Assembly (NCBI RefSeq): GCF_009830285.1
Contig: NZ_WUQX01000001.1
Span: 3,224,501 to 3,288,500, forward strand
Reading direction: 5' to 3'
DNA length: 64,000 bases
From: Sporofaciens musculi
Lineage (GTDB): Bacteria; Bacillota; Clostridia; Lachnospirales; Lachnospiraceae
Shown: positions 21,876 to 37,625 of the stretch, piece by piece
Position numbering within the stretch: position 1 is the first letter of the stretch
Layout: each line of letters begins with the position of its first letter
Program-made: the position numbers and the translations under genes
Notes under the pieces: model-generated
Seen by the model: only the letters and a program-made list of their open reading frames with translations
Databases searched by the model: none
What the model was told of the DNA's origin: nothing

Positions 21876-21932
21876 TTAATTGCAACAGTTGGTAAAATAT
21901 AGTATAGCTTGATACAAAGGAGGAATCTAACC

Positions 21933-22298
21933 ATGGCTTTCGCAGAAAAATTGAAAGCTCTGCGTCATGAAAAAAATATGACCCAGGAATATGTTGCCGA
22001 ACGCATGAATGTTGCCCGCTCTACAATCGCTGGTTATGAAACAAAAAATCGACAGCCCTCCCACGAGAAGCTGTCAGCCTTCGCCAACCTCTTCCACGTA
22101 ACCATCGATTATCTTCTCGATGACGAGGAACCAAGTTACATCACAGAAGACGAATCAAGAACCATGGACGATGACGCCCAAGAACTCTTAAAGAGATACC
22201 GGCGTCTGTCCATACGCTCAAAAAAAGACCTGTTAAAGCATCTCAATCTTTTGGAACTCCGAGACGGAAGCAAAAAATCGGAAACAGAATCACTCTGA
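21933..22298 (+). CDS. XRE-family helix-turn-helix regulator
   Basis: Predicted DNA-binding regulator of 121 residues. Residues about 6-62 are a Cro/C1-type domain: LKALRHEKNMTQEYVAERMN, then VARSTIAGYE as recognition helix and FANLFHVTIDYLLDDEE. The acidic C-terminus is helical and contains DDDAQELLKRYRRLSIRSKK. ATG 21933 is nine bases after AGGAGG and is preferred over the upstream in-frame ATG at 21909. It is about 65% similar by eye to the gene at 23238 and shares its operator-like palindrome. Targets unknown. Confidence 0.9.
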   Translation: MAFAEKLKALRHEKNMTQEYVAERMNVARSTIAGYETKNRQPSHEKLSAFANLFHVTIDYLLDDEEPSYITEDESRTMDDDAQELLKRYRRLSIRSKKDLLKHLNLLELRDGSKKSETESL

Positions 22299-22375
22299 AC
22301 ATACAATTATACCCTTGTTGGACTATGTCCACCTACCCGCAGAATATACATTACAGCATGCCCTGCGGGTATGAC

Positions 22376-22426
22376 AAAGGGGCTGTCAGGAAATGACATT
22401 TTACAGCATTTTCCGACAGCCCCTTT
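22376..22426. terminator. Bidirectional terminator between convergent genes
   Basis: A 20-bp stem with a mismatch: 22376-22395 (AAAGGGGCTGTCAGGAAATG) pairs with 22407-22426 (CATTTTCCGACAGCCCCTTT). It lies between the XRE gene and the convergent GerMN lipoprotein gene and has a T run on each end. It is related to the hairpin at 16787-16833. Confidence 0.85.
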
Positions 22427-22437
22427 CTAATGCTCAC

Positions 22438-23046
22438 TTATGAAAACTTCCCAAAATATCCCGAATACTCCATATGTCCGGTCTCCAATGTGGCCCCGTC
22501 TACCGTAATCTTAATCTGGTCGCAAAAATATGCGTCCAGGAAGGTGTTGCACACACTTCCCACCGCATAGTATTCTCCCGCAGAACCCATACTTGACACA
22601 TAAGAAGCAAATGCACTGTTAAAATCAATTAGAATCGTATCTTCTCCGTCTACTGTAGACTTCTCCAAAGAATTAATCTTCACATCTGCCGAGACAGCCC
22701 CCTGAACAAACAAAGCGTCCAATACCGCCTGGGGTGTCAGGGAATCAAGCTCTACCTCTGATGTAGCAAATGCGGTAGCATCTTCATTGCAGCTATAAAT
22801 CGTAATCTTCGTCGTTCCCTCTGTATTCTGGTCCGTTCCCTGGTTCTCCTCCCGATCCTTATCCGGCTTCTCCTCCTGAGGCTCTCCGTCCTGGTCGTCC
22901 TCCTCATCCTCATTCATATTATCATCCTCCGGCTTCTCCTGCTCATCCTGGCTTACCGGCTCTGTGGGCGGATTGTCTTGGCTCTGTTCACAGGCTGTCA
23001 GACAAAATAGTCCGGCTAAAATCATTATTAAAATTCTTTTCTTCAT
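22438..23046 (-). CDS. GerMN-domain lipoprotein
   Basis: Secreted lipoprotein of 202 residues. The signal peptide ends in the lipobox LTAC (Cys19), so the protein should be anchored on the outer face of the membrane. A linker of Glu, Asp, Pro and Gln (about 20-80) is followed by a GerMN domain (about 83-185) with ITIYSCNEDATAFATSEVEL, SLTPQAVLDALF, ILIDFNSAF and CNTFLDAYFCDQIKITVDG. GerMN domains occur in the germination protein GerM and in many clostridial lipoproteins of unknown role. AAAGGAG precedes ATG 23046. It is convergent with the first XRE gene. Confidence 0.85.
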   Translation of the reverse strand: MKKRILIMILAGLFCLTACEQSQDNPPTEPVSQDEQEKPEDDNMNEDEEDDQDGEPQEEKPDKDREENQGTDQNTEGTTKITIYSCNEDATAFATSEVELDSLTPQAVLDALFVQGAVSADVKINSLEKSTVDGEDTILIDFNSAFASYVSSMGSAGEYYAVGSVCNTFLDAYFCDQIKITVDGATLETGHMEYSGYFGKFS

Positions 23047-23157
23047 GGTTCCTATACTCCTTTCCCCATTTTAGGATAAACCTACTTTTATTATATCAAT
23101 AAGTCTTTCAAGTGTAAAGAGCAGGTTCCGTTAGATTTTCATTAGAGTTTCTTTTCG

Positions 23158-23172
23158 GAACAATATATGTTC
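23158..23172. promoter_or_regulatory. GAACA-N5-TGTTC palindrome upstream of the second XRE gene
   Basis: GAACA-ATATA-TGTTC, the same palindrome as at 21861-21875, lies 65 bases before the XRE start at 23238. Both copies are followed by TTAA-rich sequence and GGTAAAATATA. Confidence 0.55.
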
Positions 23173-23237
23173 TTTAACGAAACATCTGGTAAAATATACC
23201 AAAAGAAGTATTTATTTTAACAAAGGAGGAATATAGT

Positions 23238-23624
23238 ATGGCTTTTGCTGAAAAACTAAAGGCCCTACGGCATAAGTACAATATGACTCAAGAATATGTG
23301 GCAGAACATATGAATCTCTCTCGAACCACAATCGCAGGCTATGAATCCAAAAACCGTAAGCCCTCTCATGAAAACCTGTTTGCATTCGCCCGATTTTTCC
23401 ATGTGACTGTTGACTATCTTCTCTCAGACAGTGAACCTTCTTATATCAGCCCAGAAGAAGCACAGACCATGCCTGAAGATGCCCAGGAGCTTTTAATCCG
23501 ATACCGTCGGCTTCCCATACGCTTAAAGAAAGACTTATTGAGACAGCTTCGCCTTCTGGAAGTTCAGGACGGAATCGGTATTGCAAAAACGGCAGACGCC
23601 ATATCCGAAAATAGATCGTACTAG
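23238..23624 (+). CDS. XRE-family helix-turn-helix regulator
   Basis: Regulator of 128 residues, a close paralogue of the gene at 21933. The Cro/C1 domain reads LKALRHKYNMTQEYVAEHMN, LSRTTIAGYESKN and FARFFHVTVDYLLSDSE. The C-terminal region YISPEEAQTMPEDAQELLIR is a signature shared with the paralogue and, in decayed form, with a fragment near 32330. AAAGGAGG precedes the ATG. A third XRE gene follows 11 bases after the stop, so the two are probably co-transcribed. Confidence 0.9.
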   Translation: MAFAEKLKALRHKYNMTQEYVAEHMNLSRTTIAGYESKNRKPSHENLFAFARFFHVTVDYLLSDSEPSYISPEEAQTMPEDAQELLIRYRRLPIRLKKDLLRQLRLLEVQDGIGIAKTADAISENRSY

Positions 23625-23635
23625 AGGCTTATCAT

Positions 23636-23896
23636 ATGAATTTTGCTGAAATTCTAAAAACACTACGCCAAAAAAACAACCTGACACAGATTGAACTTGC
23701 ACAGCATACCAATCTTGCACGCTCTACCATAGCAGGTTATGAGAAGAAATACCGCCAGCCTCCTTACGAAACTTTAATCATGCTGGCCGACTTCTTCCAT
23801 GTGTCTATTGATTATCTTCTTACGGGTCGGGAATCCGTTTATACTGCTTCGGATCAAACTTGGGCTACGATTGATGGAGTACGTCACATTTCTTAA
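23636..23896 (+). CDS. Small XRE-family helix-turn-helix protein
   Basis: Compact regulator of 86 residues, nearly all helix-turn-helix: ILKTLRQKNNLTQIELAQHT, LARSTIAGYEKKYRQPPYET and ADFFHVSIDYLLTGRE. It lacks the acidic C-terminal helix of its two neighbours. The start is preceded by GAGGCTTATCAT, a modest ribosome site, and lies 11 bases after the stop of the previous XRE gene. Three related regulators in 2 kb suggest local duplication followed by divergence. Confidence 0.85.
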   Translation: MNFAEILKTLRQKNNLTQIELAQHTNLARSTIAGYEKKYRQPPYETLIMLADFFHVSIDYLLTGRESVYTASDQTWATIDGVRHIS

Positions 23897-24073: not shown

Positions 24074-24622
24074 TTATTTAATTTTAATCTCTGAAAAGTC
24101 AATTTCAAAATCATCAAAAATCCCTGCCCTAACCTTATCAGAAAAAGTATATTCCTCTACCGTATCCCACTGGAAATCATATACTGTGACCCTATCCTTT
24201 TCAACATCTACAATCCAGTATTCCCTGACACCTGACGCACTATATTTGAGTAGCTTCTTATAGTAATCTATGGGGCGGCTTGTGGGAGATGCAATTTCAA
24301 TAATCCAATCTGGCGCGCCCATGCATCCTTCTGATGCAATCTTATCTTTATCACATATAACAGAAATATCCGGTTCAAGGTAAATATCCTTCTTTGAATT
24401 TAAAAATACTGCAAAAGGCGAAGGAAATACTTCACAATCACCCTTTTTTTCTCCTATATAGACCCTTATTCTATAAGATATCTCCATTACCAATCGCTGG
24501 TGCAGCATACTGGGAGTCGCCATATAGTATATCTGACCGTCGATTAACTCTGCTCTCTCACCCTCCGGCAAAGCATAAATATCATCTATCGTATAGATTT
24601 GTTCTTTTCTGGCTACATTCAT
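24074..24622 (-). CDS. Uma2-family (DUF820) PD-(D/E)XK endonuclease-like protein
   Basis: Protein of 182 residues of the Uma2 family, which has a restriction-endonuclease-like fold but mostly unknown function. Visible landmarks are YALPEGERAELIDGQIYYMA, HQRLVMEISYRIRVYIGEKK, CEVFPSPFAVFL, YLEPDISVICD and APDWIIEIASPTSRPIDYYK, in which the Glu-Pro-Asp, the Glu of IEIASP and the later Lys fit the PD-(D/E)XK core. GGAGG precedes ATG 24622. It lies just past the end of the HD/Hsp90-like cassette, and its link to that cassette is only positional. These proteins are often found near mobile or defence genes. Confidence 0.88.
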   Translation of the reverse strand: MNVARKEQIYTIDDIYALPEGERAELIDGQIYYMATPSMLHQRLVMEISYRIRVYIGEKKGDCEVFPSPFAVFLNSKKDIYLEPDISVICDKDKIASEGCMGAPDWIIEIASPTSRPIDYYKKLLKYSASGVREYWIVDVEKDRVTVYDFQWDTVEEYTFSDKVRAGIFDDFEIDFSEIKIK

Positions 24623-24657: not shown

Positions 24658-25488
24658 TCAATTTGAATTATCATCAAAAACCCATTCATATATCGAATCT
24701 GCCAGTTTATCGTATTCATTCTGAATCTGAGGAATCGTCAATCGCCTGTCTTTATGAATCTGATAAATATACGTCCATTCATATAGTAATCTTAGCTCAT
24801 TTGGATCCTTCACAATCTCACAAAATTTTTTATATGTAATTCCTCCCTCATTTTCTTCTTTCATAACACGATTCCAGCTTTTGCCCGTAAAAGGAAGGAT
24901 TAAAAAATAACTATAAGATTTTTTATTCACAGTCTTTATAAAACTCACAACATCTTCCTTCAACAAATTCTGATATCTATCTGCAAATACATCCGTAACC
25001 CATATAGGATATTCCTCATAATGATCCTCCCTCTCTCCATTATCACAAATAACTATTGGAAATATCACTGACTGATTCAATGCAGCTTTTAACGTCTTTT
25101 TTATATCATCTCCTATTTTAGATGTACCATTTCTTCTACTCCCTTTTTTCTTTTCCACACATACAATATTCAAATAAAGCTTCCCATTTTCCTTGATTTT
25201 CAAATAGGATACACGCCTGCCATGTTCATAATTATTAACATATTCATTTAAAACATCACATACCTCCGGATCAATTACAATATAAGAATTCTCATTAGTT
25301 AATTTCCAAATCATTTCATCACTCTCGGTATTAAATTCAGGATTTTTCCCATTATTTACATAATTGTCCACAATATATCGACAATCTACCCTGAACAATC
25401 CCATATCTATATCGAATTCTCTATCATCGTCTGCACCGGCAAAGAAGAAACATTCTTTTTCTCTAATATCTTTTAATACTTCATTCAT
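24658..25488 (-). CDS. Hypothetical protein, last gene of the HD/Hsp90-like ATPase cassette
   Basis: I do not recognise this 276-residue protein. It is predicted soluble, with no signal peptide or membrane helix. It begins with a short acidic N-terminus containing CFFFAGADDDREFDIDMG. The middle is mixed alpha/beta with YLKIKENGKLYLNIVCVEKK and IFPIVICDNGERED, and the C-terminal third is mostly helical. No catalytic motif stands out. Its ATG (25488) overlaps the stop of a 40-codon frame by four bases, which hints at translational coupling. It is AT-rich like the genes upstream and unlike the XRE block downstream. Membership in the cassette is inferred from strand, composition and spacing (192 bases from the ATPase stop). 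Confidence 0.6.
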   Translation of the reverse strand: MNEVLKDIREKECFFFAGADDDREFDIDMGLFRVDCRYIVDNYVNNGKNPEFNTESDEMIWKLTNENSYIVIDPEVCDVLNEYVNNYEHGRRVSYLKIKENGKLYLNIVCVEKKKGSRRNGTSKIGDDIKKTLKAALNQSVIFPIVICDNGEREDHYEEYPIWVTDVFADRYQNLLKEDVVSFIKTVNKKSYSYFLILPFTGKSWNRVMKEENEGGITYKKFCEIVKDPNELRLLYEWTYIYQIHKDRRLTIPQIQNEYDKLADSIYEWVFDDNSN

Positions 25489-25607
25489 ATTCTTTTTTCT
25501 TCTTTAAAAAATCCATTTTTAAAAATTATATTTTCAATTTCCTCGCACTTATAAATCTCTGCTTCTTTCACAGCCTTCCTCATAGCTGCTTTTTTATCCA
25601 AGTCCAT
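25485..25607 (-). CDS. Possible 40-residue small protein coupled to the 24658-25488 gene
   Basis: A short frame in the gap after the ATPase gene encodes 40 residues rich in Lys and Glu: MDLDKKAAMRKAVKEAEIYK then CEEIENIIFKNGFFKEEKRI. Its TGA overlaps the next ATG (ATGA). No good ribosome site precedes ATG 25607, so it may be a chance frame, a remnant or the N-terminal relic of the next gene. The tight 4-base overlap is the main reason to list it. Confidence 0.35.
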   Translation of the reverse strand: MDLDKKAAMRKAVKEAEIYKCEEIENIIFKNGFFKEEKRI

Positions 25608-25680
25608 AATTAAAAAAAGTTTTCACTACTAACCTGCTTTTTAATTTTACTGAGTTTTCCTGCATTTACGCTAACGACTC

Positions 25681-28068
25681 CTAAATAGTACCAGGTAAGC
25701 ACTTTTTTATTTCTTTCTGCCGGTTCTCACAATCCGTAAATTCATTAAAATAATTAATAAATAATGAAGCATATAATATTTTTAAAATATATAAATTCTT
25801 CCGGTGCTTATTCCTCATATCACCAATAAAACAATCTCTGCTTACTGACAAATAATGAGTCACATTATCCCCATAATATATCGTCTCTATCGAAAATGGT
25901 TCGTTCGTCTCTATCGCCTCATCACGGATAATAATTCCCTTATAATAACATTTAGATTGATTTATGTCTCCATCTAAAGTCAAAATAGACATAATATAAT
26001 CTTTATTATCCCATAAAACCATTGTATCATCATATACAAAACTTTTTATATTCCAACTCTCATTACCTATTTTCACAGAATTAACAACATTCCTGCCAAC
26101 TTTCTCCAAATTAACAGAAGGAGTAGGAAGCCACCCCATCCCCACTCTCCGTTCAGCCTCATTATCGCATTCTAGGTAAACAGGAATCAAAGAATAAATT
26201 GCCATCTCAGAAATGTAGCGTTCCATTATATCCAGCAAAACTTTTGGCAACTCTTGGCAGTCATAAATATTTCTTTCTATTCTCTCATCCAAGCCGAAAA
26301 ACTTCTTTTTTTCCTGGAGCTCCCGCAAAAACAAACCAAGATTAATATATACCTCAACACGGGTTCCATTTTTTGCATCGCTATCTGAATATTCAGAAAC
26401 CTTCCCGCCTTTTTTCTTACTTTCAATTACAATCTTTTTGCCTCTTGGTTCTTTTTCCGACTTAGTAATAAAAACAACTGCATCTGTAAGCATAAAAGCA
26501 GATTGGATTCCAATTCCAAATCCTCCAGTTGGTCTAAGCCATACAGGCATTTTTTCTATTTCATCTGCATACTCCTTACGGCTTTTCCAATGATTGCCAG
26601 CCACAACTGAAAGTGTAGATATACATTTTTCTTCCATCCCAATCCCATGATCTTGTATTGAAAAAAGAATTTCCTGTTTTTCCCAATTAATCTTAAACTC
26701 CATTTCAATCCTGTTCTGCTCATATACGTCGGAGTTAATGTCAAAAGGTGTGATGTCCTCTGGAGGATACATTTTCAACAACGATTTCTGTTCTTTAAGC
26801 CACAGCCATAACTTCATCTTTGAAGCATCCAGTGCATTCTGCAGATACTCCCTGATAAACTCCAGACGAGTTTTATAAATGTTATTTCCTATCAACATCT
26901 CAAATATTCCGACAGGATCTGCCTGAAAATTAGTCTGCTTATTAGCATCGAACAATTCATCTTTATAGTATATTTTCAGATCACATTTATTCATCCGACA
27001 TCCATATAATTCTTTCGGAACAATCAAATTCCAAGAACAGATAAGATGTACCGTTTCTTCCTCAATCCAGGAAAACCATTGATTCACAGTTTTACACACT
27101 TGAAAATCTTCAGATTTTGCAACCGCCGATATTCCTTCCTCTGTATAAGAAAGATGTGTCATTGCTTTATGTTTCTGTATATGGAGCTGGCTCTCTACAG
27201 GGATCATTCCCATATGATTCAGCATACGGGTATTAAAACGGTTACTGTCCATATCCAGGAGATCACCAAGGCGAATCATCACAGCCGCAAACTGAGGGTG
27301 CATATGATCACAGCTAAACCCATTATCTTCCTGTTTTACCATGCTGTATACTTTCTCAAATTCCTCTCCATGCAATATAGAAATCTGTGCTACAATTTCA
27401 TACATGCGGCTCCTGTCTTTTTTACGTCCATAACCACGGATAAATCCTCCTGAACGTTCTGTATGTCTGCTCCGTATAAACTCAGTATACAATAGCATAA
27501 TATAACGCTGTGCAATAACTGCCCAGCATTCCTGATCCAAAAGGTTATCAAATTCTTTTATAAATTCATTCGGCTCATCGGCATTAGCGGCTCTCACAAA
27601 TTCTGAACGGTTCCTTACAATCTCATCCAATTTTGTATAGATATAAGCTATCTTTCTCGTATCTTCCGATTTAGAATTCATTGATTTTTTTACAAATTCC
27701 TTAAACTCCGACTGTTCCCATATATCACACAGCTCCTCATAGGTAATTGCCATACCAATATCATGACAATAAGCGCTTTCCAATAACAGCCACAAGTCGC
27801 TCACCGAAAGCATTTCTACTCTCTCTTTTCCTAAGATCATTTTAATATTATGCAAAATATTAACAGAATGTGATCTATCGTGCATACTGTAATGCTGAAA
27901 GTCAAACACTGTTGTATCTGTAAAAGAACAGTAGTATTTCTTATCTTCCCTCCACTCATTTATCAGATGATTCCCTATTTTAAATTCCTGACATTTTATC
28001 TCAAAACATTTCTCAATATATGTATCTGCCTGAGAAGCATTCAGAAATCCTTCTCCATCCCTCATCAT
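25681..28068 (-). CDS. HD phosphohydrolase domain fused to an Hsp90-like (GHKL) ATPase
   Basis: Large cytoplasmic protein of 795 residues. The N-terminal half looks like an HD metal-dependent phosphohydrolase: HDRSHS (64-69), CHDIGM (101-106, the His-Asp pair), HGEEF (233-237) and GDLLDMDSNRFN (268-279). The second half is a GHKL/Hsp90-type ATPase: N-box REYLQNALDASK (406-417, with Glu, Asn and Asp in place), G1 box DHGIGM (473-478) and G2 box TGGFGIG (514-520). Both parts keep their key residues, so both may be active. This arrangement points to ATP-driven control of a nucleotide phosphohydrolase, as in conflict systems, but that is inference. It is the fourth gene of a minus-strand run that starts with a phosphoribosyltransferase-like protein. 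Confidence 0.82.
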   Translation of the reverse strand: MMRDGEGFLNASQADTYIEKCFEIKCQEFKIGNHLINEWREDKKYYCSFTDTTVFDFQHYSMHDRSHSVNILHNIKMILGKERVEMLSVSDLWLLLESAYCHDIGMAITYEELCDIWEQSEFKEFVKKSMNSKSEDTRKIAYIYTKLDEIVRNRSEFVRAANADEPNEFIKEFDNLLDQECWAVIAQRYIMLLYTEFIRSRHTERSGGFIRGYGRKKDRSRMYEIVAQISILHGEEFEKVYSMVKQEDNGFSCDHMHPQFAAVMIRLGDLLDMDSNRFNTRMLNHMGMIPVESQLHIQKHKAMTHLSYTEEGISAVAKSEDFQVCKTVNQWFSWIEEETVHLICSWNLIVPKELYGCRMNKCDLKIYYKDELFDANKQTNFQADPVGIFEMLIGNNIYKTRLEFIREYLQNALDASKMKLWLWLKEQKSLLKMYPPEDITPFDINSDVYEQNRIEMEFKINWEKQEILFSIQDHGIGMEEKCISTLSVVAGNHWKSRKEYADEIEKMPVWLRPTGGFGIGIQSAFMLTDAVVFITKSEKEPRGKKIVIESKKKGGKVSEYSDSDAKNGTRVEVYINLGLFLRELQEKKKFFGLDERIERNIYDCQELPKVLLDIMERYISEMAIYSLIPVYLECDNEAERRVGMGWLPTPSVNLEKVGRNVVNSVKIGNESWNIKSFVYDDTMVLWDNKDYIMSILTLDGDINQSKCYYKGIIIRDEAIETNEPFSIETIYYGDNVTHYLSVSRDCFIGDMRNKHRKNLYILKILYASLFINYFNEFTDCENRQKEIKKCLPGTI

Positions 28069-28087
28069 AGCATTTACGACTCTTTCT

Positions 28088-28711
28088 CTAATCTGTATTA
28101 ACTAAATTCCCCTGCCTTCTCTGCATTTCCAGCCATTCCAGTCCACGCAGACAAATACAACGGAGCTGTGTACAATCCCCTAACTTTTTGGGCATTCCTT
28201 TTTTGTGAATCTCTATAATTCTTTCCATCCAAGCGCCTCCAAGATTATTCTCCAATTCCGTCAATTCTTCTGAATCTATCTGCTTCTCAACATCTTTTCC
28301 ACTTTGCATCCTGAACCATTGTACCGTCAAGTACTGTAATGTAATAAAATGATGTATAAACTCCATATTTTCTACACTGTCTTGCAATGCCAAAATGGGT
28401 ATTTCAAAGAAAACATGTGTATTAAACTTAATCTTTTCCTTAGGCTCTTTTATTGAATGTATAATAAATCTATCTCTAAATTTTTCTTTCGTCACATATT
28501 TTTTTACTTCTCTTGAAATGTCTTCCAAGGCTTTTGAATGAAACCTATCGCCAATCTCGCCAATCTCTGTACAATAAATACACTTTTCAAACATGTATAT
28601 ATCTAATATAATTCTCCGACTATCCTTCCTAGCTCCTCCCTCCTTGATCATTGCTATCATGCTCCGGTCATATTCTGCAATCCAAACTGCAACTTTGTCT
28701 CTTGTGTCCAT
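28088..28711 (-). CDS. Hypothetical protein upstream of the HD/Hsp90-like ATPase
   Basis: Unrecognised soluble protein of 207 residues with no signal peptide or membrane segment. It starts VAVWIAEYDRSMIAMIKEGG, has a central FNTHVFFEIPILALQDSVEN and a helical end with CTQLRCICLRGLEWLEMQRR. The cysteines (CIYC, CTQLRCIC) could bind metal, but the spacing is not a known finger. AGGGGAAGAA leads into ATG 28711. It ends 20 bases before the ATPase start and begins 21 bases after the previous gene, so it is almost certainly part of the same transcript. The function cannot be inferred from sequence alone. Confidence 0.68.
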   Translation of the reverse strand: MDTRDKVAVWIAEYDRSMIAMIKEGGARKDSRRIILDIYMFEKCIYCTEIGEIGDRFHSKALEDISREVKKYVTKEKFRDRFIIHSIKEPKEKIKFNTHVFFEIPILALQDSVENMEFIHHFITLQYLTVQWFRMQSGKDVEKQIDSEELTELENNLGGAWMERIIEIHKKGMPKKLGDCTQLRCICLRGLEWLEMQRRQGNLVNTD

Positions 28712-28731
28712 TTCTTCCCCTACTCTGCGAA

Positions 28732-29631
28732 TTAATAATTCACCACGAATTCTTCAATCTTATGCATATATTGCATACGAATTTCCCCTAATTCATTATG
28801 ATAATAAGACTCAAGAATACTGGATTTATTGTAAAGCGAGGACTTATTTTTCAAAGCCTTCTTAAAATATTTCCTATTATTTTCTAAAATGTCTTGATTG
28901 ATTTCATTTCTTAAAAATTCATCTTTAAATATCCATTTTTCAAATGCTTCAGAAAAATCATCGTAACACAACCTTGCTTTTTCAATACCAATCTTTGTAA
29001 CATACAACATTACAGCCCAATAATAGTATAGGTTAAAAAATGGCAAAAACAAATCACTATTTTCTCCATATCGGAACCCCCTCTTAATACCGTCTTCCTC
29101 CATAGTTAATTTATTGCTGCACATACTCAAGTTTAACATTGTAACAATAGTCCTTGTTAAGGCGTACTTTTCCTCATCTCTACTTTTAAAGACAAACTTA
29201 TTACATATAAGCGCTTCTATTTCTTCCAATGATACTACCGTATCTATCTTTTTACCGCAAGGATTTTTACGCCATTCTAAATATCTATCTTTCTTTTCAG
29301 TAAGTAGTACATTGATCATGGTATATGCTTTATCTTCATTATAAGGCTTTTCTATCTTTTCATAAAGACTAGATATTCTTCTTACATTTACTAACTCTTT
29401 ATTTTGCAATCCTTCCATCATTTTAAGTCTTTCATATATGATTCTCGGATTATCCTTCATCTTTTTGTACAATTCATGTACAATATTGATAAAATCCTGT
29501 GAATAATGGTCTTTCATGATGAGATAATTATACACCAGTTCGACGCCACTTTCAATCTTCATATAATTGCAAAAACATTCTGCAATGTACATACTCAAAA
29601 AATAAACACATTCCCTATATTTACCTCTCAA
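28732..29631 (-). CDS. Hypothetical helical protein of the HD/Hsp90-like cassette
   Basis: Unrecognised protein of about 299 residues, mostly helical, with Lys, Glu, Tyr and Asn in abundance. Stretches such as IYERLKMMEGLQNKELVN and LFLPFFNLYYYWAVMLYVTK suggest a repeat-free alpha-helical fold. One hydrophobic patch (about 205-222) is too polar around it for a confident membrane helix. The start is uncertain: the frame opens at TTG 29631 without a clear ribosome site, and the first in-frame ATG is at residue 14. The frame is open further upstream into the end of the phosphoribosyltransferase-like gene. Second gene of the minus-strand run. Confidence 0.62.
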   Translation of the reverse strand: MRGKYRECVYFLSMYIAECFCNYMKIESGVELVYNYLIMKDHYSQDFINIVHELYKKMKDNPRIIYERLKMMEGLQNKELVNVRRISSLYEKIEKPYNEDKAYTMINVLLTEKKDRYLEWRKNPCGKKIDTVVSLEEIEALICNKFVFKSRDEEKYALTRTIVTMLNLSMCSNKLTMEEDGIKRGFRYGENSDLFLPFFNLYYYWAVMLYVTKIGIEKARLCYDDFSEAFEKWIFKDEFLRNEINQDILENNRKYFKKALKNKSSLYNKSSILESYYHNELGEIRMQYMHKIEEFVVNY

Positions 29632-29657
29632 TATGTTTTTTAGCGCACTTTTATCTG

Positions 29658-30596
29658 TTATCTTTTGTATGTTTTTGTATATTCAGTATTTTTACAATCC
29701 CAAAACAAGCTTTCCCATAATTTGCAAAGATACTCTTTATCCATAGAACGCAAAATAGCAAATGGTATCAATATAATCTCAATGTCATCTTCTTCCTTCT
29801 TTACGTATATTCCCTCCATCACAAAATCAACTGCAAACTGGGACGTAATTTGGAATAATTCACAATCTTTCATCTGAAAAATGAAACTTGGAAATATTTC
29901 TTCTTCATTAAATTTGTAAAAATTCTCGTGAAACCTCCAACTTTCATTTCCATTTTTCAGCCTCTCAAACTGCTTTTGGGTTAATCGAATCCGAAAATCC
30001 ATCTCCTCATCGTCTGTTTTACTATCATGTAAGAATGGCAGGTCAATCACAAATGGTATCCCTTGCTTCTGCAGTACTTTCGTCTGTTTCATGCATAGTT
30101 CACCTATCCCATCATCTGACATATGGATAAAATAATTCAATTTCTCCCAAAACCAAACTTCCTCCTCTTGCCCCGCTTGTCTGGCAATCTCTACTTTCTT
30201 CTCAATATCTACTTCTAAAGACATCGCAAATACAAGCGGAAAAATCATTTTCGGCTCAATCCCTAATCCTATTAACAAATAAAATGTTTCCAACAGACTT
30301 GCACCTTGAGATAATGAATCATCCACTAAATAGATGAATTTATCTTTCAATCGTGAAATATCGACAATCTTTCTGACGTATCTGTCGCTATATAACTCTA
30401 TTTTATGGGCATTTTTAGTATTTTTCTCAAACACTTTATAGATCCAATACCCCTTTCGGGTATTCAGCAAGAGCACTGCGTTCTTTTTAGAGGGGTTATT
30501 ATTCACATCCCATATCTCATTATTTAACTTCACCAAAAAATACTTCAGCTTTGCCCCACATGTAGTATTTATGAACTGTTCCCAGCTATTCATCAT
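29658..30596 (-). CDS. Phosphoribosyltransferase-like protein, first gene of the cassette
   Basis: Soluble protein of 312 residues. Residues about 38-150 fit the type I phosphoribosyltransferase fold: AVLLLNTRKGYWIYK, then the PRPP-binding loop FIYLVDDSLSQGASLLETFY (hydrophobic strand, two Asp, small residues SQGAS), then PKMIFPLVFAMSL. The C-terminal half is not recognised. In a standard enzyme the loop reads VDDvxTTGxT, and here SLSQGAS keeps the acidic pair and the Gly, so PRPP binding is plausible but not certain. RBS TTAGGGATGG lies upstream of the ATG. It opens the operon that continues with two unknown proteins and the HD/Hsp90-like ATPase. A nucleotide-linked substrate for the HD domain is one possible link. 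Confidence 0.7.
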   Translation of the reverse strand: MMNSWEQFINTTCGAKLKYFLVKLNNEIWDVNNNPSKKNAVLLLNTRKGYWIYKVFEKNTKNAHKIELYSDRYVRKIVDISRLKDKFIYLVDDSLSQGASLLETFYLLIGLGIEPKMIFPLVFAMSLEVDIEKKVEIARQAGQEEEVWFWEKLNYFIHMSDDGIGELCMKQTKVLQKQGIPFVIDLPFLHDSKTDDEEMDFRIRLTQKQFERLKNGNESWRFHENFYKFNEEEIFPSFIFQMKDCELFQITSQFAVDFVMEGIYVKKEEDDIEIILIPFAILRSMDKEYLCKLWESLFWDCKNTEYTKTYKR

Positions 30597-30756
30597 ACAC
30601 CATCCCTAATTTTAAATTTATATATTTCACTTATCACTTTCATGGCGTATTGTCAATGCTTTCACCCCAGACAAGCAGCATAATATAGCCAGAATACTTG
30701 TCTTTCGCTTCACCTTACACTTTATATATTACACCTCACAAAATGAACTACACAAA

Positions 30757-30780
30757 AGTGAAACGAAACATTCGTTCACT
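30757..30780. promoter_or_regulatory. Dyad operator candidate next to the regulator promoter
   Basis: AGTGAAACGA (30757-30766) faces TCGTTCACT (30772-30780); the arms match apart from one extra A. It touches the -35 box of the regulator promoter, the right place for autorepression and for control of the divergent operon. Confidence 0.6.
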
Positions 30781-30808
30781 TGACCACTCAAAAAATTAAT
30801 GTTATAGT
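30780..30808 (+). promoter_or_regulatory. Sigma-A type promoter for the winged-helix regulator
   Basis: TTGACC (30780-30785), a 17-bp spacer and TATAGT (30803-30808), 34 bases before the start codon. Near consensus. Confidence 0.75.
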
Positions 30809-30841
30809 AATTATACATCTATTACAAGGAAAGGAGTAGCC

Positions 30842-31825
30842 ATGGAGAAATCTAACGCTTATTCATTTGACACTTTTGAATCAGAAACCAGTATAGATAA
30901 AAACATTATGGATGAGCTCAATAGGACGTTGACCAAAAGTCATCGTGAAATTTTAAATGTCCTCCACAGCTCTCCGAACCTTACTCCGAAATCTCTCAGT
31001 GCTAGATTAGGGAAATCGCCAAATAGTCTCTCAAATATGCTTTCGAGGATAAATGAAATTAATCCACACCTCATCCATGATGAAAAAGTAGGACGAGAAA
31101 AGCAATTACGGTTGGGTACTATAGGCATTGCATACTTAGAAGCGCAAGAATCTTCATCTGATAAACCAAAGAAAATACTTAAATTTTCTAACTCTGCACG
31201 TGATGAAGCTTTGAAAAACGCTCTGTTATCTCTTAATAACTTTAAAAAATGCGATCCTGATAATTGGCTCTTAAAATTGGATGATTGTCTAACCGACCAT
31301 ATGAATATAGATGAAAATCCTCTTTTGTATACTGCCTACAATAAATTTATTGATAATATTCGTACATTAAGAATTAAAGGATATCTTCTAACATTACAGA
31401 CTATTTACGACCACTTAAATAACGAAATTATCGTAAAACGGATTCAGGAGACCCTGGATCAGTTATTAAATCATTTTTATCAGTTAGAAACCTTGTTCAA
31501 TCTAACTAATGAAAAACCTCAAATTGCTTTTGAAATTATTGATGATATGTTTCTGAAGATTTTTCCTGACGTTTGGGGCGGTTTGCCAACCGTTTCATCA
31601 ATACCGCACAAAAATCTCTTTCCTGAAGCAACATATGCCTCTACATATTATCAGATTTCAAATATGGTACACACGGCAGTCCTAAATCATTGGGAAAAAA
31701 AACAAGCCATCGAGCAATGGGAAAAAAGTTATTGTACCAGTAATGTAATATTCTATTATATTGCCGAAAAATGTAAGACTATTCAAACCATCCAATCTAT
31801 CAAGCAGGGAAAAAGCATCTTGTAA
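30842..31825 (+). CDS. Winged-helix regulator divergent from the HD/Hsp90-like cassette
   Basis: Predicted DNA-binding protein of 327 residues. Residues about 32-98 form a MarR/ArsR-like winged helix: SHREILNVLHSSPNLTPKSL, ARLGKSPNSLSNMLSRINE and a basic wing VGREKQLRLGTIG. The C-terminal 200 residues are mostly helical, with FIDNIRTLRIKGYLLTLQTI; I do not recognise the domain, which may sense a ligand or a partner. A strong promoter, a dyad over its -35 edge and GGAAAGGAG before the ATG support expression and autoregulation. A terminator hairpin overlaps the stop. Divergent placement suggests it controls the cassette at 24658-30596. Confidence 0.78.
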   Translation: MEKSNAYSFDTFESETSIDKNIMDELNRTLTKSHREILNVLHSSPNLTPKSLSARLGKSPNSLSNMLSRINEINPHLIHDEKVGREKQLRLGTIGIAYLEAQESSSDKPKKILKFSNSARDEALKNALLSLNNFKKCDPDNWLLKLDDCLTDHMNIDENPLLYTAYNKFIDNIRTLRIKGYLLTLQTIYDHLNNEIIVKRIQETLDQLLNHFYQLETLFNLTNEKPQIAFEIIDDMFLKIFPDVWGGLPTVSSIPHKNLFPEATYASTYYQISNMVHTAVLNHWEKKQAIEQWEKSYCTSNVIFYYIAEKCKTIQTIQSIKQGKSIL

Positions 31826-32823: not shown

Positions 32824-34401
32824 TTAAAATGTTTTCCGGATTTTCTCCACATCCAGCATCCCAAGGTCCCCCGCCAATTCTGTCAACTCTGCCTCCAGAC
32901 AAAACAAATCTACCGCTGTAGCAAAAAAATCCAGTATCACATTTATGGCAACTGCAATCACAATGGCCTGGGCAGGGATTTCAAGCTGTAACAGCAGAAT
33001 CGTATAGCAGGCAAGAGCACCTCCGGGAATGGGCGGTGTAGCCACAGCCAGTACAACTGCAATGACCAGCGCTGTAATCAGCCATACCGGAGATATTTTC
33101 ACACCATAAATCTCCGCCATGCAAATTCCCATTACAAAATATAAAATAGAAAATCCCGGCATGAATACCACCTGGCCAAGAGGAACACCGATATTTACAA
33201 TTTTTTTATCAATCCCCAGCTTTTCTGCGCACACTTTCCTGTTCTCCAAAAATGCGGCGGCAGAAGAAGCTGTTGTCAGACCAATCAAAAAAACTGGAAA
33301 AACTTTTTTCAGGAAGACTGCCATAGAAACTTTTTTACGAATGCATACAAGACCTGTATAAGCTACCATAAGAAAGACATCCCCAAGCAGCATAACCGGC
33401 AGCACTTTATATGCCTTCAGCAGTACAGAAAAGTTTTTACCAATAATCATATTGAAAAGACTGCCAAAAATGAAAACGGGGACAAAAGCGCTGATATTTT
33501 CCTTGATTAGTAATACAATGTCATTTGCCTGTTCTAAAAATAGCGAAACAATTAAAGCCCTGTTCCCCAGAATCAGCATTGCCATCCCTACAAGAGCTGC
33601 AAGAAAAATAATCTGTAAAGGATTTCCCTCCAAAAACGGAGTGAAAAAATTGTCCGGTACAATTCCAAGAACCATTTCCAGAAGTTCCGAAAACCGAAAG
33701 GAACTGCTGCCGCTGCCTGCAAGAGGAAATAAAGGCAGGATGGCAATGCCAAATACTGTGGTAAAAATCAGTGTCATCCATAAAAATCTATAGATCATCC
33801 GCTTTCCGACTTTTCCCAGCGTTGCAATATCCCCAATATTATAAATACCGCCTGCCACCGACAAAAATATAAGGGGCCCTGCAACAGCGCTCAACAGTCC
33901 CATAAATGTGTCAAAAACAGGCGTAATCATTTCCTCTGAAAGAAAATTAACAGTTTTTTCCGGTAGAAAAGTGCTTACCATACCGCAAAAAAGAGCCAGT
34001 GCCACTGCTGCCAGCAGTGATACTGCAGGAGATAATTTTTTCTTTTTTAATGTAAAGGTAAGGTAATTGACTCCGTTTTTGAACTGCCATGTGGGAATTT
34101 CTCCCATACCTGAAAGGATGCCTTTCAGGATAGCGCTTTCTTCACCGCTGTCCATATGAATTGCATCGTTTCTTTCTCCCGGAATAGAAAAACTGGCATA
34201 CAGACGGTTTATCCGCTTTCTGCACTGAAATTGAAAAGTCCCCTTTGTGCCAAAAGCTTCCTGATATTTCAGCAGTATCTCTTCCACAGCCAGCCGTGTG
34301 CGGAGAATGTCTCTTTTTTCCCCATTGGCGCGTTCACAAAATGTATCTACTTGATGACACGCCACATCTATATCATGATTTGTCAGGTTGTAATCCTGCA
34401 T
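32824..34401 (-). CDS. SDF-family amino acid/dicarboxylate symporter with an N-terminal RsbW-like domain
   Basis: Predicted cation-coupled uptake protein of 525 residues. Residues about 125-510 are a GltP/DctA-type symporter with about eight membrane segments plus re-entrant loops: GPLIFLSVAGGIYNIGD, a variant of the serine-rich loop in LTTASSAAAFLENR, and ATPPIPGGALACYTILLLQL. The first about 120 residues are cytoplasmic and resemble a degenerate GHKL/RsbW-type ATPase half: RLAVEEILLKYQEAFG in place of an N-box and NGVNYLTFTLKKK as last strand, but without the Gly boxes. The same extra domain occurs in the neighbouring symporter and at the end of the ABC ATPase. AGGAG precedes ATG 34401. It follows the disrupted paralogue by 17 bases. 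Confidence 0.85.
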   Translation of the reverse strand: MQDYNLTNHDIDVACHQVDTFCERANGEKRDILRTRLAVEEILLKYQEAFGTKGTFQFQCRKRINRLYASFSIPGERNDAIHMDSGEESAILKGILSGMGEIPTWQFKNGVNYLTFTLKKKKLSPAVSLLAAVALALFCGMVSTFLPEKTVNFLSEEMITPVFDTFMGLLSAVAGPLIFLSVAGGIYNIGDIATLGKVGKRMIYRFLWMTLIFTTVFGIAILPLFPLAGSGSSSFRFSELLEMVLGIVPDNFFTPFLEGNPLQIIFLAALVGMAMLILGNRALIVSLFLEQANDIVLLIKENISAFVPVFIFGSLFNMIIGKNFSVLLKAYKVLPVMLLGDVFLMVAYTGLVCIRKKVSMAVFLKKVFPVFLIGLTTASSAAAFLENRKVCAEKLGIDKKIVNIGVPLGQVVFMPGFSILYFVMGICMAEIYGVKISPVWLITALVIAVVLAVATPPIPGGALACYTILLLQLEIPAQAIVIAVAINVILDFFATAVDLFCLEAELTELAGDLGMLDVEKIRKTF

Positions 34402-34418
34402 TTTAAACTCCTAAAAGA

Positions 34419-35982
34419 TTATTTCATATATTTTTCTTCTCTTAGTTTTCTCACATCCAGCATATCAAGACTGGCAGCCAGTTCCACAAGCTCCGCCTGC
34501 AGACAGAACAAGTTCACCGCTGTAGTAATAAATTCCAGTATTACATTGAGGGCAATCGTGATCGCTACAGCCTCCATGGGAATCTTAAGCTGGACAAATA
34601 AAATCGTATAACAGGTCAACGCACCGCCGGGAATAGGAGGCGCCGCCACCGCAAGCACAATAGCAATGAGACCGGCCATAGCCAGCCACGCCGGAGAAAC
34701 CGTCACGCCATAGATTTCAGCCATACAAAATCCCACCGCTAGAAACATAACGGAAACCCCTGGCATAAAAATAACCTGCCCCAAAGGAATACCAAAATTA
34801 ACGATCCTTCTGTCAATCCCAAGGTCTTTTTCACAGCACTCCATATTCACCCCAAATGCGGCTGAAGAAGATGCCGTGGTTAATGCAATCAGAAAAGTGG
34901 GCATCATCTTTTTCAGCAATACCCAAAGCTGCACCTTCCTCCTTGTGCATACTAGCACAAGATACACTGCCAGAAGAATGGCATCTCCCATAAGCATTAC
35001 CAGAACCACCTTATATGCAGGAAGAAATACCGAAAAGTCGTTACCCAGTATCATACTTAAAATACTGCCAAACACAAACACGGGAACAAAAGAACTGACT
35101 GTCTCCATAATAAGCTGTATAATATAATTGGACTGTTCCACAAAAGCCGCGGCAATCGTAGCTTTATTTCCCAGAATCAGCATTGCGATTCCGATTAAAA
35201 CTGCCACAAAAATAATCTGCATAGGATTCCCTTCTGTAAAGGGCGTAAAAAAGTTACCTGGTACAATGTCCAGAACCATTTGATACAATTCAGAAAAATC
35301 AAACTTCCCCCCGTCTCCGGTTTTAAGAGAAAAAAACGGCATGGCAAATACACATACGGGCAGTGTCAGAAGAATCGTCATCAGCATAAAGCGTCCAATC
35401 ATCCTCTTTCCGATTCTGCCCATAGCCGCCATATCCCCAATGCCGTATATTCCCCATACAATTGAAAGAAACACCATAGGACCTGCAATGGCTGATAAAA
35501 GTCCCATAAAACGGTTAAATACCGGGCTGATAAGCTCATTTGCAAGAAAAGTCCTGACACTCTCTGGCAGGAACCTACACACACCGCCGCACAAAAAAGC
35601 CAGTATTACAGACAGTGCCAGTGAAGCCATCTGAGAACGTTTCTTCTTTTTGGGAGTAAATAAAATAAGATTCTCTCCATTTTTGTACTGCCACGAGGGT
35701 GCAACCCCCATATTGGCAAGCAGTCCCCGCATTACCTGGCTTTGTTCTTCCTCCCCTGTATCAAAGGGATCAACCCTTTCCCCCGGCAGGGAAAGTTCCA
35801 AACGGATACGATTAAGACGTTTGATATATTTTTGTACAAATACTGCCTCCATACCGAAAGCCTCCTGGTACTTTAACAGCGTTTCCTCCACTGCAAGCCG
35901 GATTTGGATAATATTTCTAGCATCAACGCCCCATTCTCCAAGTGTTTTTTCTGCAAGACTGCTTGTCTGCGCAATGTTTTCA
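34419..35982 (-). pseudogene. SDF-family symporter gene split by the IS4-type element inside codon 8
   Basis: Paralogue of the downstream symporter, with the same RsbW-like N-terminal region (IRLAVEETLLKYQEAFG) and the same transporter core (GPMVFLSIVWGIYGIGD, LTTASSSAAFG, APPIPGGALTCYTILFVQL). The insertion element at 35991-37579 separates codons 1-7 plus two bases (37580-37602, MEKMKLN) from the rest. Removing the element and one copy of the 8-bp duplication restores one uninterrupted frame of 528 codons that aligns end to end with the 525-residue neighbour. The remaining part could only start at an internal GTG (35891) without a ribosome site, so it is probably not expressed as a full protein. 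Confidence 0.88.
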
Positions 35983-35990
35983 TTATTTAA
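35983..35990. repeat. Target-site duplication, left copy
   Basis: TTATTTAA directly outside the left end of the element. The identical right copy is at 37580-37587. Eight bases fit the range known for some IS4-family groups. Confidence 0.88.
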
Positions 35991-37579
35991 CTCAAACTTC
36001 GCACATAGATTTTAGCTATGCACCTTGAAAATTCAATATCTGGCAGTATTTAGTTGTCAATGTTCAGTCAATTATGCCACTTGCAGCTTCGATTTTAAAA
36101 GTGCAGGTATTGCATCCATAAATGCTTTTACCAGCTCGTCGATTTTTTCATCAGATATATCTATCTGATCCACAAGCAGAGTTCTGAACATTTGAAGCTA
36201 TTTGAAAAGCCTGTATCCATGTGATATCAGACATCTCATCAGAAAAGTATAAAAACAGTTCCCCCATAGAACGGGTATCATTAGATTCCCGGTTCTCCAG
36301 GGAAAGCATCATATATCTTGTAAAAACGATTGCTGTATGGGCAGTCATTGCATCATAAGATAGGGATCTGCATTCTTTACTTAGATTAAGATAGCTCTTG
36401 CAGACTTTAAAGAATACTTCAATATCCCAACGTTTTCCATAAATGCGGATAATCTCTTCTTCACTCAGACTCACGTCTGTGGAAATGAGACAAAGATATT
36501 CCTTTCTCTTGTTTTTGTTACGGATATAGACCACTTTGGCAGGGATGGTTTTTCCTTCCTTTACAACATCTACCATGACGGAAAGCAGATACCGGGAACG
36601 TCCACGCCGTTTCCTGTTTTTCTTGTAAATAGTTGTCAGCGGCATATCTTCGCTGTTATACCGGAAGAACATTTTAGGTGTTTTCTTTACCATTGCAATT
36701 ACATCATATCCGATTTCTTTGACAGCATGAAGAGAGCTTGGAGAAGAGAACCAGCTGTCAAACAGAACGTATTTAGCCGGAATACCAGCCTTTTTAGCAG
36801 ATTTTAAAAGTTCCAGCATGGCGATCGTTCCTTTCTTGACAGCAAGCATACGGCGCTTATATCCAACCGTTCTTTTATCCGTTTCCTTTGCTTCATTGAT
36901 TCTGTTCTTTTTATTTTCGGTGGAGAGAAGGACACTGTTGACCGGGAGAAAAGTGCTTCCGTCTGACCAGCCTAATGTAAGCATGCGAAAACCAAATTTA
37001 TAACAATGTTTTGCATGGTCATATACCTTTGCAAGAAGTTCCACTTTTTTGGAACGGTTACGTTCAAACATGGAATCGTCAATGATCAGTACGTTGACAC
37101 GGTCTGCGGAATCAAGTGGAGCAATGGCATCCCTAATGATTCGGCTGGATAAAACCGTTGTGAACCGAATCCAGTTAATCTGGAGCATTTTCATAAAACG
37201 ATAAACCGTATCTTTTGCAAAATCCGGTGAGTCTTTTCCAATCAGCAGGTTCATATACATACTTCTGTTTGAAAATATCAAAAGAAACAGATACTGAAAA
37301 ATCAGTGCTGCAGAAATTCCCTTCTTTTTGTAGGCATTAGCAGTTTTCAATGCAGAAGAAAGATGAAACCGTGTAAAAAATCTTCTGATAGATTTCGAAA
37401 TCTGGTTATCATTTTGATTGTCTTGTGTTATACTTTTATTCATAGCATGAGCCTCCGGATATATGATTGTTTCTGAACAACTCAATTATATCAAAACCAG
37501 ACGGTTTCATGCTATTTTTATGTCAGTTATTATTGAATTTTCAAGGTGCATAGGTACTTATTCAAGTGCGAAGTTTGAG
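35991..37579 (-). mobile_element. IS4-type insertion sequence, 1589 bp, with two-part terminal inverted repeats
   Basis: The outer ends are perfect 14-bp inverted repeats, CTCAAACTTCGCAC (35991-36004) and GTGCGAAGTTTGAG (37566-37579). Eleven to twelve divergent bases follow on each side, then a second perfect 23-bp inverted repeat (36016-36038 and 37531-37553). An 8-bp direct duplication TTATTTAA flanks the element. Inside is one transposase gene on the minus strand. Precise excision restores the host symporter frame, which confirms the boundaries independently. Confidence 0.92.
36151..37443 (-). CDS. IS4-family transposase with an apparent frameshift near its C-terminus
   Basis: DDE transposase that moves the surrounding element. 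Acidic residues sit in VLIIDDSMFERN, in VLFDSWFSSP and in the YREK region YGKRWDIEVFFKVCKSYLNL. About 430 residues long. I start at ATG 37443 because GGAGG lies 8 bases upstream. The frame ends at 36151 with the odd tail NVQNSACGSDRYI, but the next frame continues with MFRTLLVDQIDISDEKIDEL to a stop at 36072. That is a normal-looking IS4 ending. One extra base near 36197-36200 would explain the shift. The catalytic core is intact, so activity cannot be excluded. Confidence 0.85.
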   Translation of the reverse strand: MNKSITQDNQNDNQISKSIRRFFTRFHLSSALKTANAYKKKGISAALIFQYLFLLIFSNRSMYMNLLIGKDSPDFAKDTVYRFMKMLQINWIRFTTVLSSRIIRDAIAPLDSADRVNVLIIDDSMFERNRSKKVELLAKVYDHAKHCYKFGFRMLTLGWSDGSTFLPVNSVLLSTENKKNRINEAKETDKRTVGYKRRMLAVKKGTIAMLELLKSAKKAGIPAKYVLFDSWFSSPSSLHAVKEIGYDVIAMVKKTPKMFFRYNSEDMPLTTIYKKNRKRRGRSRYLLSVMVDVVKEGKTIPAKVVYIRNKNKRKEYLCLISTDVSLSEEEIIRIYGKRWDIEVFFKVCKSYLNLSKECRSLSYDAMTAHTAIVFTRYMMLSLENRESNDTRSMGELFLYFSDEMSDITWIQAFQIASNVQNSACGSDRYI

Positions 37580-37625
37580 TTATTTAATTTCATCTTTTCC
37601 ATATTTTTTCTCTTATTTTTTTAAT

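What the first reader, a model, noticed from the sequence alone, without database searches (positions are those of the whole stretch)
24658..31825. Candidate undescribed conflict or defence cassette: PRTase-like, two unknowns, HD + Hsp90-like ATPase, plus divergent regulator
Four minus-strand genes with gaps of only 20-26 bases (phosphoribosyltransferase-like, two proteins I cannot place, HD-GHKL ATPase) and probably a fifth (24658-25488) form one unit, faced by a winged-helix regulator with a dyad over its promoter edge. HD and GHKL motifs are intact. A nucleotide-type enzyme joined to an ATP-gated HD phosphohydrolase is a logic known from NTP-dependent conflict systems, but I know no described system with this set. 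Uma2, XRE genes, IS relics and a SIR2-TPR gene nearby give the feel of a defence island.
Basis: partly seen in the sequence, partly recalled or inferred. Interest (0 to 1): 0.85.

Follow-up and report, generated by a model that had tools for sequence, protein, structure and literature searches.

The report
HD–HSP90 operon with phosphoribosyltransferase-like enzyme
A rare bacterial gene cluster joins an HSP90-like ATPase/HD hydrolase, usually found as a lone gene, to a phosphoribosyltransferase-like enzyme and helper proteins; it looks like a new version of a suspected conflict or anti-virus protein, but its function is untested.

Summary
The operon is real. Minus-strand genes at 24658-30596 encode a PRTase-like protein (PRT), P4, P3, an HD + HSP90-type ATPase protein (HDG) and P5; a winged-helix gene (REG) faces them, with a dyad at its promoter.

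HDG belongs to a known family: Pfam HD-CE (2e-46) plus an HSP90-type ATPase. HD and GHKL residues are conserved in the 35 proteins aligned. In 48 of 49 genome loci found, no separate PRT, P4, P3 or P5 relative was detected near HDG.

The 49th, a Butyrivibrio MAG, carries the same layout. There PRT and P4 are one 635-aa protein; the window pair aligns to it across one frameshift. P5 resembles, weakly, the C-terminal part of stand-alone HDGs, so it probably belongs to the unit. P3 shows no similarity.

PRT/P4 were found nowhere else in the genomes searched with them. The HDG gene is GC-poorer than its flanks in 48 of 48 stand-alone loci. This fits a horizontally moving conflict cassette grown from a stand-alone HD-HSP90 gene.

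Defence function is inferred, not shown; a defence island is only weakly supported.

The parts
29658..30596 (-). PRT: PRTase-like N-terminal part (312 aa); PRPP-loop VDDSLSQGAS; candidate pyrophosphate loop TRKG (assigned from recall of PRTase motifs)
   Evidence: 28% identity, E=8e-27 (single comparison) to the first half of L055:7314-9221; weak PRPP-motif hits elsewhere; weak PDB hits led by PRPP synthetase, E=0.049; Foldseek of a low-confidence model: 46 of 50 rows shown are PRTases by title, best E 0.042, poor TM-scores
28732..29631 (-). P4 (299 aa), helical in a low-confidence model; C-terminal half of the fused PRT-P4 protein of Butyrivibrio; TTG start without a clear ribosome-binding site
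   Evidence: E=1e-11 (single comparison) to the L055 fused protein; alignment crosses the PRT/P4 junction with one frameshift near 29671; P4 profile match begins at window 29655, upstream of the TTG (G000:C2:3253235-3254155); model
28088..28711 (-). P3: unknown protein (207 aa); same position and similar size as a 216-aa ORF in L055, no detectable similarity
   Evidence: weak PADLOC hit to candidate PDC-M38A, E=0.0014; AlphaFold2 pLDDT 35, uninformative
25681..28068 (-). HDG: HD-CE domain (57-338) + HSP90-type GHKL ATPase (about 376-573) + C-terminal region, 795 aa
   Evidence: PF24391 2e-46; NCBIfam HSP90 family 4.8e-15, below that model's curated cut-off; solved HSP90 N-domains 6.9e-14 for a 4-member family profile; residues conserved
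24658..25488 (-). P5: 276 aa, probably the C-terminal part of the HD-HSP90 protein as a separate ORF, here and in L055
   Evidence: E=9e-7 (single comparison, 50 residues) to L055:12684-13316; 16.9 bits with an HMM of 33 stand-alone C-termini, second of 885 sequences after a fragment of a broken HDG, next 9.7; the L055 counterpart itself scores only 4.7, within noise
30842..31825 (+). REG: divergent winged-helix regulator (327 aa); in L055 an XRE gene lies upstream instead
   Evidence: HTH_24 1.3e-4; PADLOC CARF3-CARF model 1e-5 over residues 14-96, the winged-helix part; own genome plus one weak relative in 299 family genomes
30756..30781 (.). imperfect dyad (operator candidate) overlapping the -35 of a REG promoter-like site
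24074..24622 (-). Uma2-family gene 35 bases downstream of P5; possibly co-transcribed; not at this place in L055
   Evidence: PF05685 6e-31; PADLOC candidate PDC-S03 5.3e-42; L055 ORFs

Best explanation
A horizontally acquired conflict (probably anti-phage, abortive-type) operon that evolved from a stand-alone HD-CE/HSP90-type gene. Likely working: the HSP90-like ATPase clamp of HDG, with its C-terminal recognition region now partly supplied by P5, senses a foreign or stress cue and, on ATP binding, unlocks the HD phosphohydrolase, which cleaves a nucleotide-type substrate. The added PRT-P4 protein binds PRPP or a nucleotide and either makes the nucleotide that the HD enzyme acts on or answers to, or is a second, growth-arresting effector as the PRTase domain is in RqlHI; P3 is an adaptor or inhibitor. 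REG represses its own promoter, and perhaps the operon, through the dyad. Shown by sequence: operon, HD-CE and HSP90-type domains, intact motifs, recurrence in one other genome, one shared PRT-P4 gene in that relative. Supported but weaker: PRTase fold, P5 as the detached HDG C-terminus. Inferred: sensing, nucleotide substrate, direction of control, defence role.
For: Same layout in Butyrivibrio L055, whose HDG is sister to the window HDG (FastTree support 1.0) inside a clade of Clostridia stand-alone HDGs (0.999; midpoint rooting): derived variant. HD and GHKL residues identical in 35 of 35. HDG relatives in records titled Clostridia, Bacteroidetes and Proteobacteria genera. HDG GC below flanks in 48 of 48 stand-alone loci, mean -9.6 points; window operon 33.8% against 45.4% in chosen flanks. 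HD-CE scores against the PADLOC model RT_UG24, filed under DRT (6.3e-16). PRTases as effectors: a DprA-PRTase pair protects against T7 and lambda (PMC9122126, passages); [quoted passage not shown] An HD dNTPase steered by a nucleotide-making partner exists: Clover (PMC12265719, abstract and opening text).
Against: No phage or toxicity data. Only two loci carry the set. PADLOC hits among 126 neighbours of stand-alone HDGs are scattered (of 25 families shown, mad3 in 4 proteins, mad2 in 2, the rest in 1 each), no control. L055's operon GC (35.9%) equals its flanks (36.5%), and other stretches of the window, about 42-56 kb, are as GC-poor as the operon, so low GC there is not special to it. PRTase fold rests on a motif and weak matches. 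PRT against a PRTase-CE protein aligns only over the 14-residue PRPP motif. phmmer with P5 alone finds only the L055 ORF, no stand-alone HDG. [quoted passage not shown]
Confidence: 0.4

Rival explanations
1. The window copy is decaying: PRT-P4 was one gene and is broken by a frameshift, so the operon here is a remnant without function.
For: Frameshift-aware alignment of the L055 fused protein runs through PRT and P4 with a single shift near 29671, score 104; P4 starts with TTG and lacks a clear ribosome-binding site; its profile match extends upstream of that start.
Against: The other frames are long and the HD/GHKL and PRPP motifs are intact; two proteins may simply replace one (gene fission, 26-base gap). 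No shuffle control was run for this junction. For the HDG/P5 junction the same test gave no sign of a frameshift (23 against 25.6 +- 3.5 in 100 shuffles). An assembly error cannot be excluded: 35 ORFs of 250 aa or more in the window hold 106 homopolymers of 6 or more, but long ORFs are unbroken by selection, so this says little.
Confidence: 0.25
2. PRT is a toxin and P3, P4 or HDG its antitoxin or guard: a toxin-antitoxin-like selfish module rather than a nucleotide-signalling pathway.
For: The PRTase domain is needed for RqlH toxicity and DprA homologues are reported as antitoxins in shosTA, syrTA and rqlHI; short gaps; divergent regulator with dyad.
Against: No DprA-like match in any protein of the unit; HDG occurs alone elsewhere and is far larger than usual antitoxins (general knowledge).
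Confidence: 0.2
3. A nucleotide salvage or cofactor-processing operon (metabolic, not conflict).
For: PRTase-like and HD proteins are both commonly nucleotide enzymes (general knowledge); the L055 copy is not compositionally foreign.
Against: Rarity: PRT 1 of 295 genomes, full-length PRT profile 1 of 397, P4 profile 1 of 77 and 1 of 398, each time only the query's own source; divergence (28% between the two PRTs); an HSP90-type ATPase is foreign to known salvage operons (general knowledge).
Confidence: 0.1

Closest known systems
HD-CE domain + HSP90-like ATPase stand-alone proteins (Pfam HD-CE, PF24391)
   Same: HDG carries both domains in the same order with the same conserved residues
   Different: The 33 stand-alones compared have 916-1043 aa in one protein; here a 795-aa protein, a separate C-terminal-like ORF and three upstream genes
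PRTase effectors: RqlHI, shosTA, DprA-PRTase defence system, retron-associated PRTases
   Same: A PRTase-type protein in a toxic or defensive setting
   Different: No DprA or RecQ partner found; PRT is fused or coupled to P4 and stands beside an HD-HSP90 protein
PRTase-CE (Pfam PF24390)
   Same: PRPP motif; one example seen here shares its protein with an HD-type domain (L154; HD read by eye)
   Different: PRT does not match PF24390 and aligns to one member only over 14 columns
Clover (CloA dNTPase + CloB)
   Same: HD-superfamily hydrolase beside a nucleotide-handling partner
   Different: Partner is a Pol-beta-type nucleotidyltransferase, not a PRTase; no HSP90-like ATPase is mentioned in the text seen

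Membership tests
HD-CE / HSP90-type ATPase family | HD-CE domain over Pfam cut-off | tested here: met
   159.2 bits against cut-off 27, profile 1-260 of 263
HD-CE / HSP90-type ATPase family | HD metal ligands and N, G1, G2 boxes (box names recalled) | tested here: met
   identical in 35 of 35 except G475, 34 of 35
HD-CE / HSP90-type ATPase family | C-terminal region after the ATPase within one polypeptide of about 900-1050 aa (usual form) | tested here: not met
   HDG 795 aa with a separate C-terminal-like ORF, P5; L055 also two ORFs, 924 + 210 aa
Type I phosphoribosyltransferase fold | PRPP-binding motif hhhhDDxxxxGxS/T (recalled) | tested here: met
   FIYLVDDSLSQGAS and ICLVDDTISNGYS
Type I phosphoribosyltransferase fold | fold or profile match to solved PRTases | tested here: inconclusive
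   best PDB sequence hit E=0.049; Foldseek best E=0.042, 46 of 50 rows PRTases by title but TM-scores about 0.1/0.3, model mean pLDDT 40.7; NCBIfam PRTase 0.007
PRTase-CE (PF24390) | match to PF24390 | tested here: not met
   no hit at E<=1 for PRT or L055 PRT-P4; none in own genome at E<=0.001
RqlHI / shosTA / DprA-PRTase | DprA-like or RecQ-like partner | tested here: not met
   no such family among matches of the proteins of the unit
Clover | Pol-beta nucleotidyltransferase partner (CloB) | tested here: inconclusive
   none over cut-off; P3 has only a sub-threshold DUF294_C hit (nucleotidyltransferase substrate-binding domain), E=0.054
Anti-phage defence system | protects against phage | not testable with these tools
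   needs an experiment

The most novel reading that the evidence does not exclude
A new conflict-system type: a PRPP-dependent enzyme (PRT-P4) makes a nucleotide that licenses or restrains an HSP90-gated HD hydrolase whose recognition module (P5) has become a separate subunit, linking an HSP90-like clamp to nucleotide signalling.
Probability: 0.17. Interest if true: 0.82.

Novelty: new variant of a known kind. Interest (0 to 1): 0.5.

Why it matters
HD-CE/HSP90-type proteins are spread over several phyla, GC-poor against their flanks, and I found no published function for them in the searches made. A multi-gene derivative names candidate partners (PRTase-like enzyme, detached C-terminal module) and so makes the substrate and trigger of the whole family testable.

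Tried and rejected
Rejected: (1) HDG/P5 as one gene broken by homopolymer frameshifts: I first thought so (note), but the junction test gave 23 against 25.6 +- 3.5 in 100 shuffles; P5 is kept as a separate ORF. (2) P3 as a homologue of the L055 ORF at the same place: BLAST E 1.1, frameshift-aware 33 against 35 +- 5 in 25 shuffles; a MAFFT pair shows 26% identity, which means little. (3) PRT as a PRTase-CE member. (4) Programmed frameshifting at PRT/P4: no canonical slippery site by eye; not tested. (5) AlphaFold of P3 (pLDDT 35.2) told nothing; in the PRT-P4 model 497 of 635 residues are below 50.

Led nowhere: PRT or its profile in viral contigs, plasmids and phages, fused PRT-P4 in plasmids, P4 in plasmids and viral contigs, REG in plasmids, HDG in viral contigs. 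HDG in phage records: 5 records; one unannotated fecal scaffold over 65% of the query, four weak hits over the ATPase region. HDG in 398 phylum genomes: 56 matched; apart from the own genome, four listed rows reach into the HD part and the others lie over the ATPase region, which I take for ordinary HtpG (not tested). PF24391 in 21 relatives: 7 with a match, 4 over cut-off; regions of 7 genomes fetched, no PRT, P3, P4 or P5 relative. Literature: ten searches. For the names PRTase-CE, HD-CE and Calcineurin-CE 31 papers matched, 20 were listed, none of these is about this by its title, and PRTase-CE occurs in none of the 20. No listed paper describes this gene set, judging by titles, abstract starts and the passages read. 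The J Bacteriol 2020 paper that I recalled as a likely source is not held. DefensePredictor (PMC13092281, passages) names a PRTase and, separately, a HATPase in figure legends without sequences, so overlap cannot be excluded.

Limits: the genome scan for HDG used two peptide patterns in 84,980 species genomes (68 stretches, 49 confirmed), so it misses divergent relatives; PRT and P4 were not themselves scanned against that collection. Several of the 49 loci are cut by contig ends. Of 8 plasmid records with an HDG match, 4 were opened. The HDG alignment and the C-terminal HMM use 3 plasmid proteins and 30 of the 48 stand-alone loci; fragments, cut loci and some sister-species copies were left out by hand. 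The neighbour scan used 126 of 169 near ORFs, from 36 of 48 loci: the last loci fell off a printed list of 150 and repeated neighbours of sister species were dropped by hand; no control set was scanned. The HMM control ran with filters off and Z=1, and P5's score carries a bias term of 11.5 bits. The PRT/P4 junction alignment has no shuffle control. Flank GC is that of the fetched stretch, short for some loci.

Full report
Observation. On the minus strand, in order of transcription: PRT 30596-29658 (312 aa), P4 29631-28732 (299 aa, TTG start), P3 28711-28088 (207 aa), HDG 28068-25681 (795 aa), P5 25488-24658 (276 aa); then a Uma2-family gene 24622-24074 after 35 bases. REG (327 aa) faces them from 30842. 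The operon has 33.8% GC against 45.4% in chosen flanks (bases 1-22000 and 34001-40000), but about 42-56 kb of the window is as GC-poor.

Identities. HDG has an HD-CE domain (PF24391, 2e-46) followed by a GHKL ATPase only weakly seen by Pfam but HSP90-like by NCBIfam (4.8e-15, below that model's curated cut-off) and, for a four-member profile, by solved HSP90 N-domains (6.9e-14). PRT, P3, P4 and P5 reach no Pfam or NCBIfam cut-off; in PADLOC only P3 has hits, the best a candidate model at 0.0014. PRT has an NCBIfam PRTase hit at 0.007 and a clear PRPP motif. REG carries a winged-helix motif (HTH_24, 1.3e-4).

Relatives. HDG relatives on plasmids (8 records, 4 opened) and 49 genome loci were inspected. 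In 48 of the 49 loci no PRT, P4 or P3 relative and no separate P5 relative was found among the ORFs of the fetched stretch, which reaches up to 10 kb each side (phmmer, E up to 10; one search lists immediate neighbours). The exception, L055 (Butyrivibrio sp. MAG; HDG best segment 42% identical over 12-586), has XRE - PRT-P4 fused (635 aa) - 216-aa ORF - HDG (924 aa) - 210-aa ORF, all on one strand. PRT matches the first half (E=8e-27), P4 the second (1e-11), P5 the last ORF over 50 residues (9e-7); P3 matches nothing there. A tree of 35 HDGs joins window and L055 with support 1.0 inside a clade of eight whose other six are Clostridia stand-alones (0.999, midpoint rooting), so the multi-gene form is probably the derived one.

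P5. An HMM of the last 280 residues of 33 stand-alone HDGs scores P5 at 16.9 bits, residues 48-268. Among 885 sequences (window ORFs with P5, other ORFs of the loci, 300 shuffles of P5) P5 ranks second, after a fragment of a broken HDG in L097 (173.9); the next is 9.7 bits. Against this: the bias term is large (11.5 bits), L055's P5 scores only 4.7, within the range of shuffles, and phmmer with P5 alone finds no stand-alone HDG. With its place next to HDG in both loci, P5 most likely is the C-terminal part of the HD-HSP90 protein as a separate subunit. Between HDG and P5 a short ORF ends in a 4-base ATGA overlap with P5 (read from the sequence); its meaning is unknown.

PRT and P4. A frameshift-aware alignment of the L055 fused protein with the window runs through both ORFs with one shift near 29671 (score 104, no shuffle control). 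P4 has a TTG start and no clear ribosome-binding site, and its profile match starts upstream of that codon. So P4 is the second half of a PRT-P4 protein, separated here by fission, mutation or assembly error.

Rarity. PRT: 1 of 295 order genomes. P4 profile: 1 of 77 genomes of L055's genus group and 1 of 398 phylum genomes, each the source of a query row. REG: 2 of 299; around the second (L159, 14 kb) no other relative of the unit was found.

PRTase fold. AlphaFold2 on three aligned rows gave mean pLDDT 40.7, with ten-residue blocks from 90 to 170 averaging 55-76 as alternating strands and helices. Foldseek found nothing at E<=0.001; of the 50 rows shown 46 are PRTases by title (EcPPAT counted as one), best E 0.042, with TM-scores of about 0.1 (query) and 0.3 (target). 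I treat the fold as likely, catalysis as possible.

Conflict-system evidence. HDG is GC-poorer than its flanks in 48 of 48 stand-alone loci (mean -9.6 points) and scattered over phyla (record titles). HD-CE overlaps the PADLOC model RT_UG24 (6.3e-16). In the literature seen here a DprA-PRTase pair defends against T7 and lambda (PMC9122126, passages); the RqlH PRTase domain is needed for toxicity, PRPP-pocket mutants had only modest effects, and the domain alone was not sufficient (PMC4670107, passages); Clover pairs an HD dNTPase with a nucleotide-making regulator (PMC12265719, abstract and opening). Against: scattered defence neighbours without a control, no foreign GC in L055 (35.9 against 36.5%), no experiment.

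Regulation. Upstream of REG lies a 26-base imperfect dyad at 30756-30781 that overlaps the -35 of a REG promoter-like site (score 9, best of 40 shuffles 8). Promoter-like sites in this region are hardly more than chance (50 found, 42.1 +- 7.3 expected). Autorepression is the simplest reading. L055 has an XRE gene upstream instead, so the regulator is exchangeable.

Verdict. A real, very rare operon built on a known HD-CE/HSP90-type protein; new variant, function unproven. My estimate that it is a conflict or defence unit of some kind: about 0.6; that the nucleotide-centred model as stated is right: about 0.4.

Noticed in passing
L154:640-3354 (G085:C118) and L153:6590-10362 (G741:C10): Pfam PRTase-CE occurs in one protein together with an HD-type N-terminal domain (read by eye), and in another genome beside a P-loop NTPase-like gene (by eye); PRTase plus HD pairing thus recurs in an apparently unrelated family.
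   Followed up: partly
L073, L076, L079, L080, L081, L089, L099 (Acinetobacter): In these seven loci stand-alone HDG sits 30-53 bases from the same 390-aa gene (starts MATLNPRDVVIVDGVRSAMGK, thiolase-like by recall): a likely integration hotspot. In L075 another gene lies next to HDG.
   Followed up: no
window 25490-25610: A short ORF of about 40 codons between HDG and P5 ends in a 4-base ATGA overlap with the P5 start.
   Followed up: partly
window 41119-43968: 949-aa SIR2_2 + TPR protein (SIR2_2 3.4e-13), possibly an NAD-consuming defence gene, about 10 kb from the operon.
   Followed up: no
window 21909-23896: Three similar XRE-family regulators close together, the first two separated by a Germane-domain gene on the other strand.
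   Followed up: no
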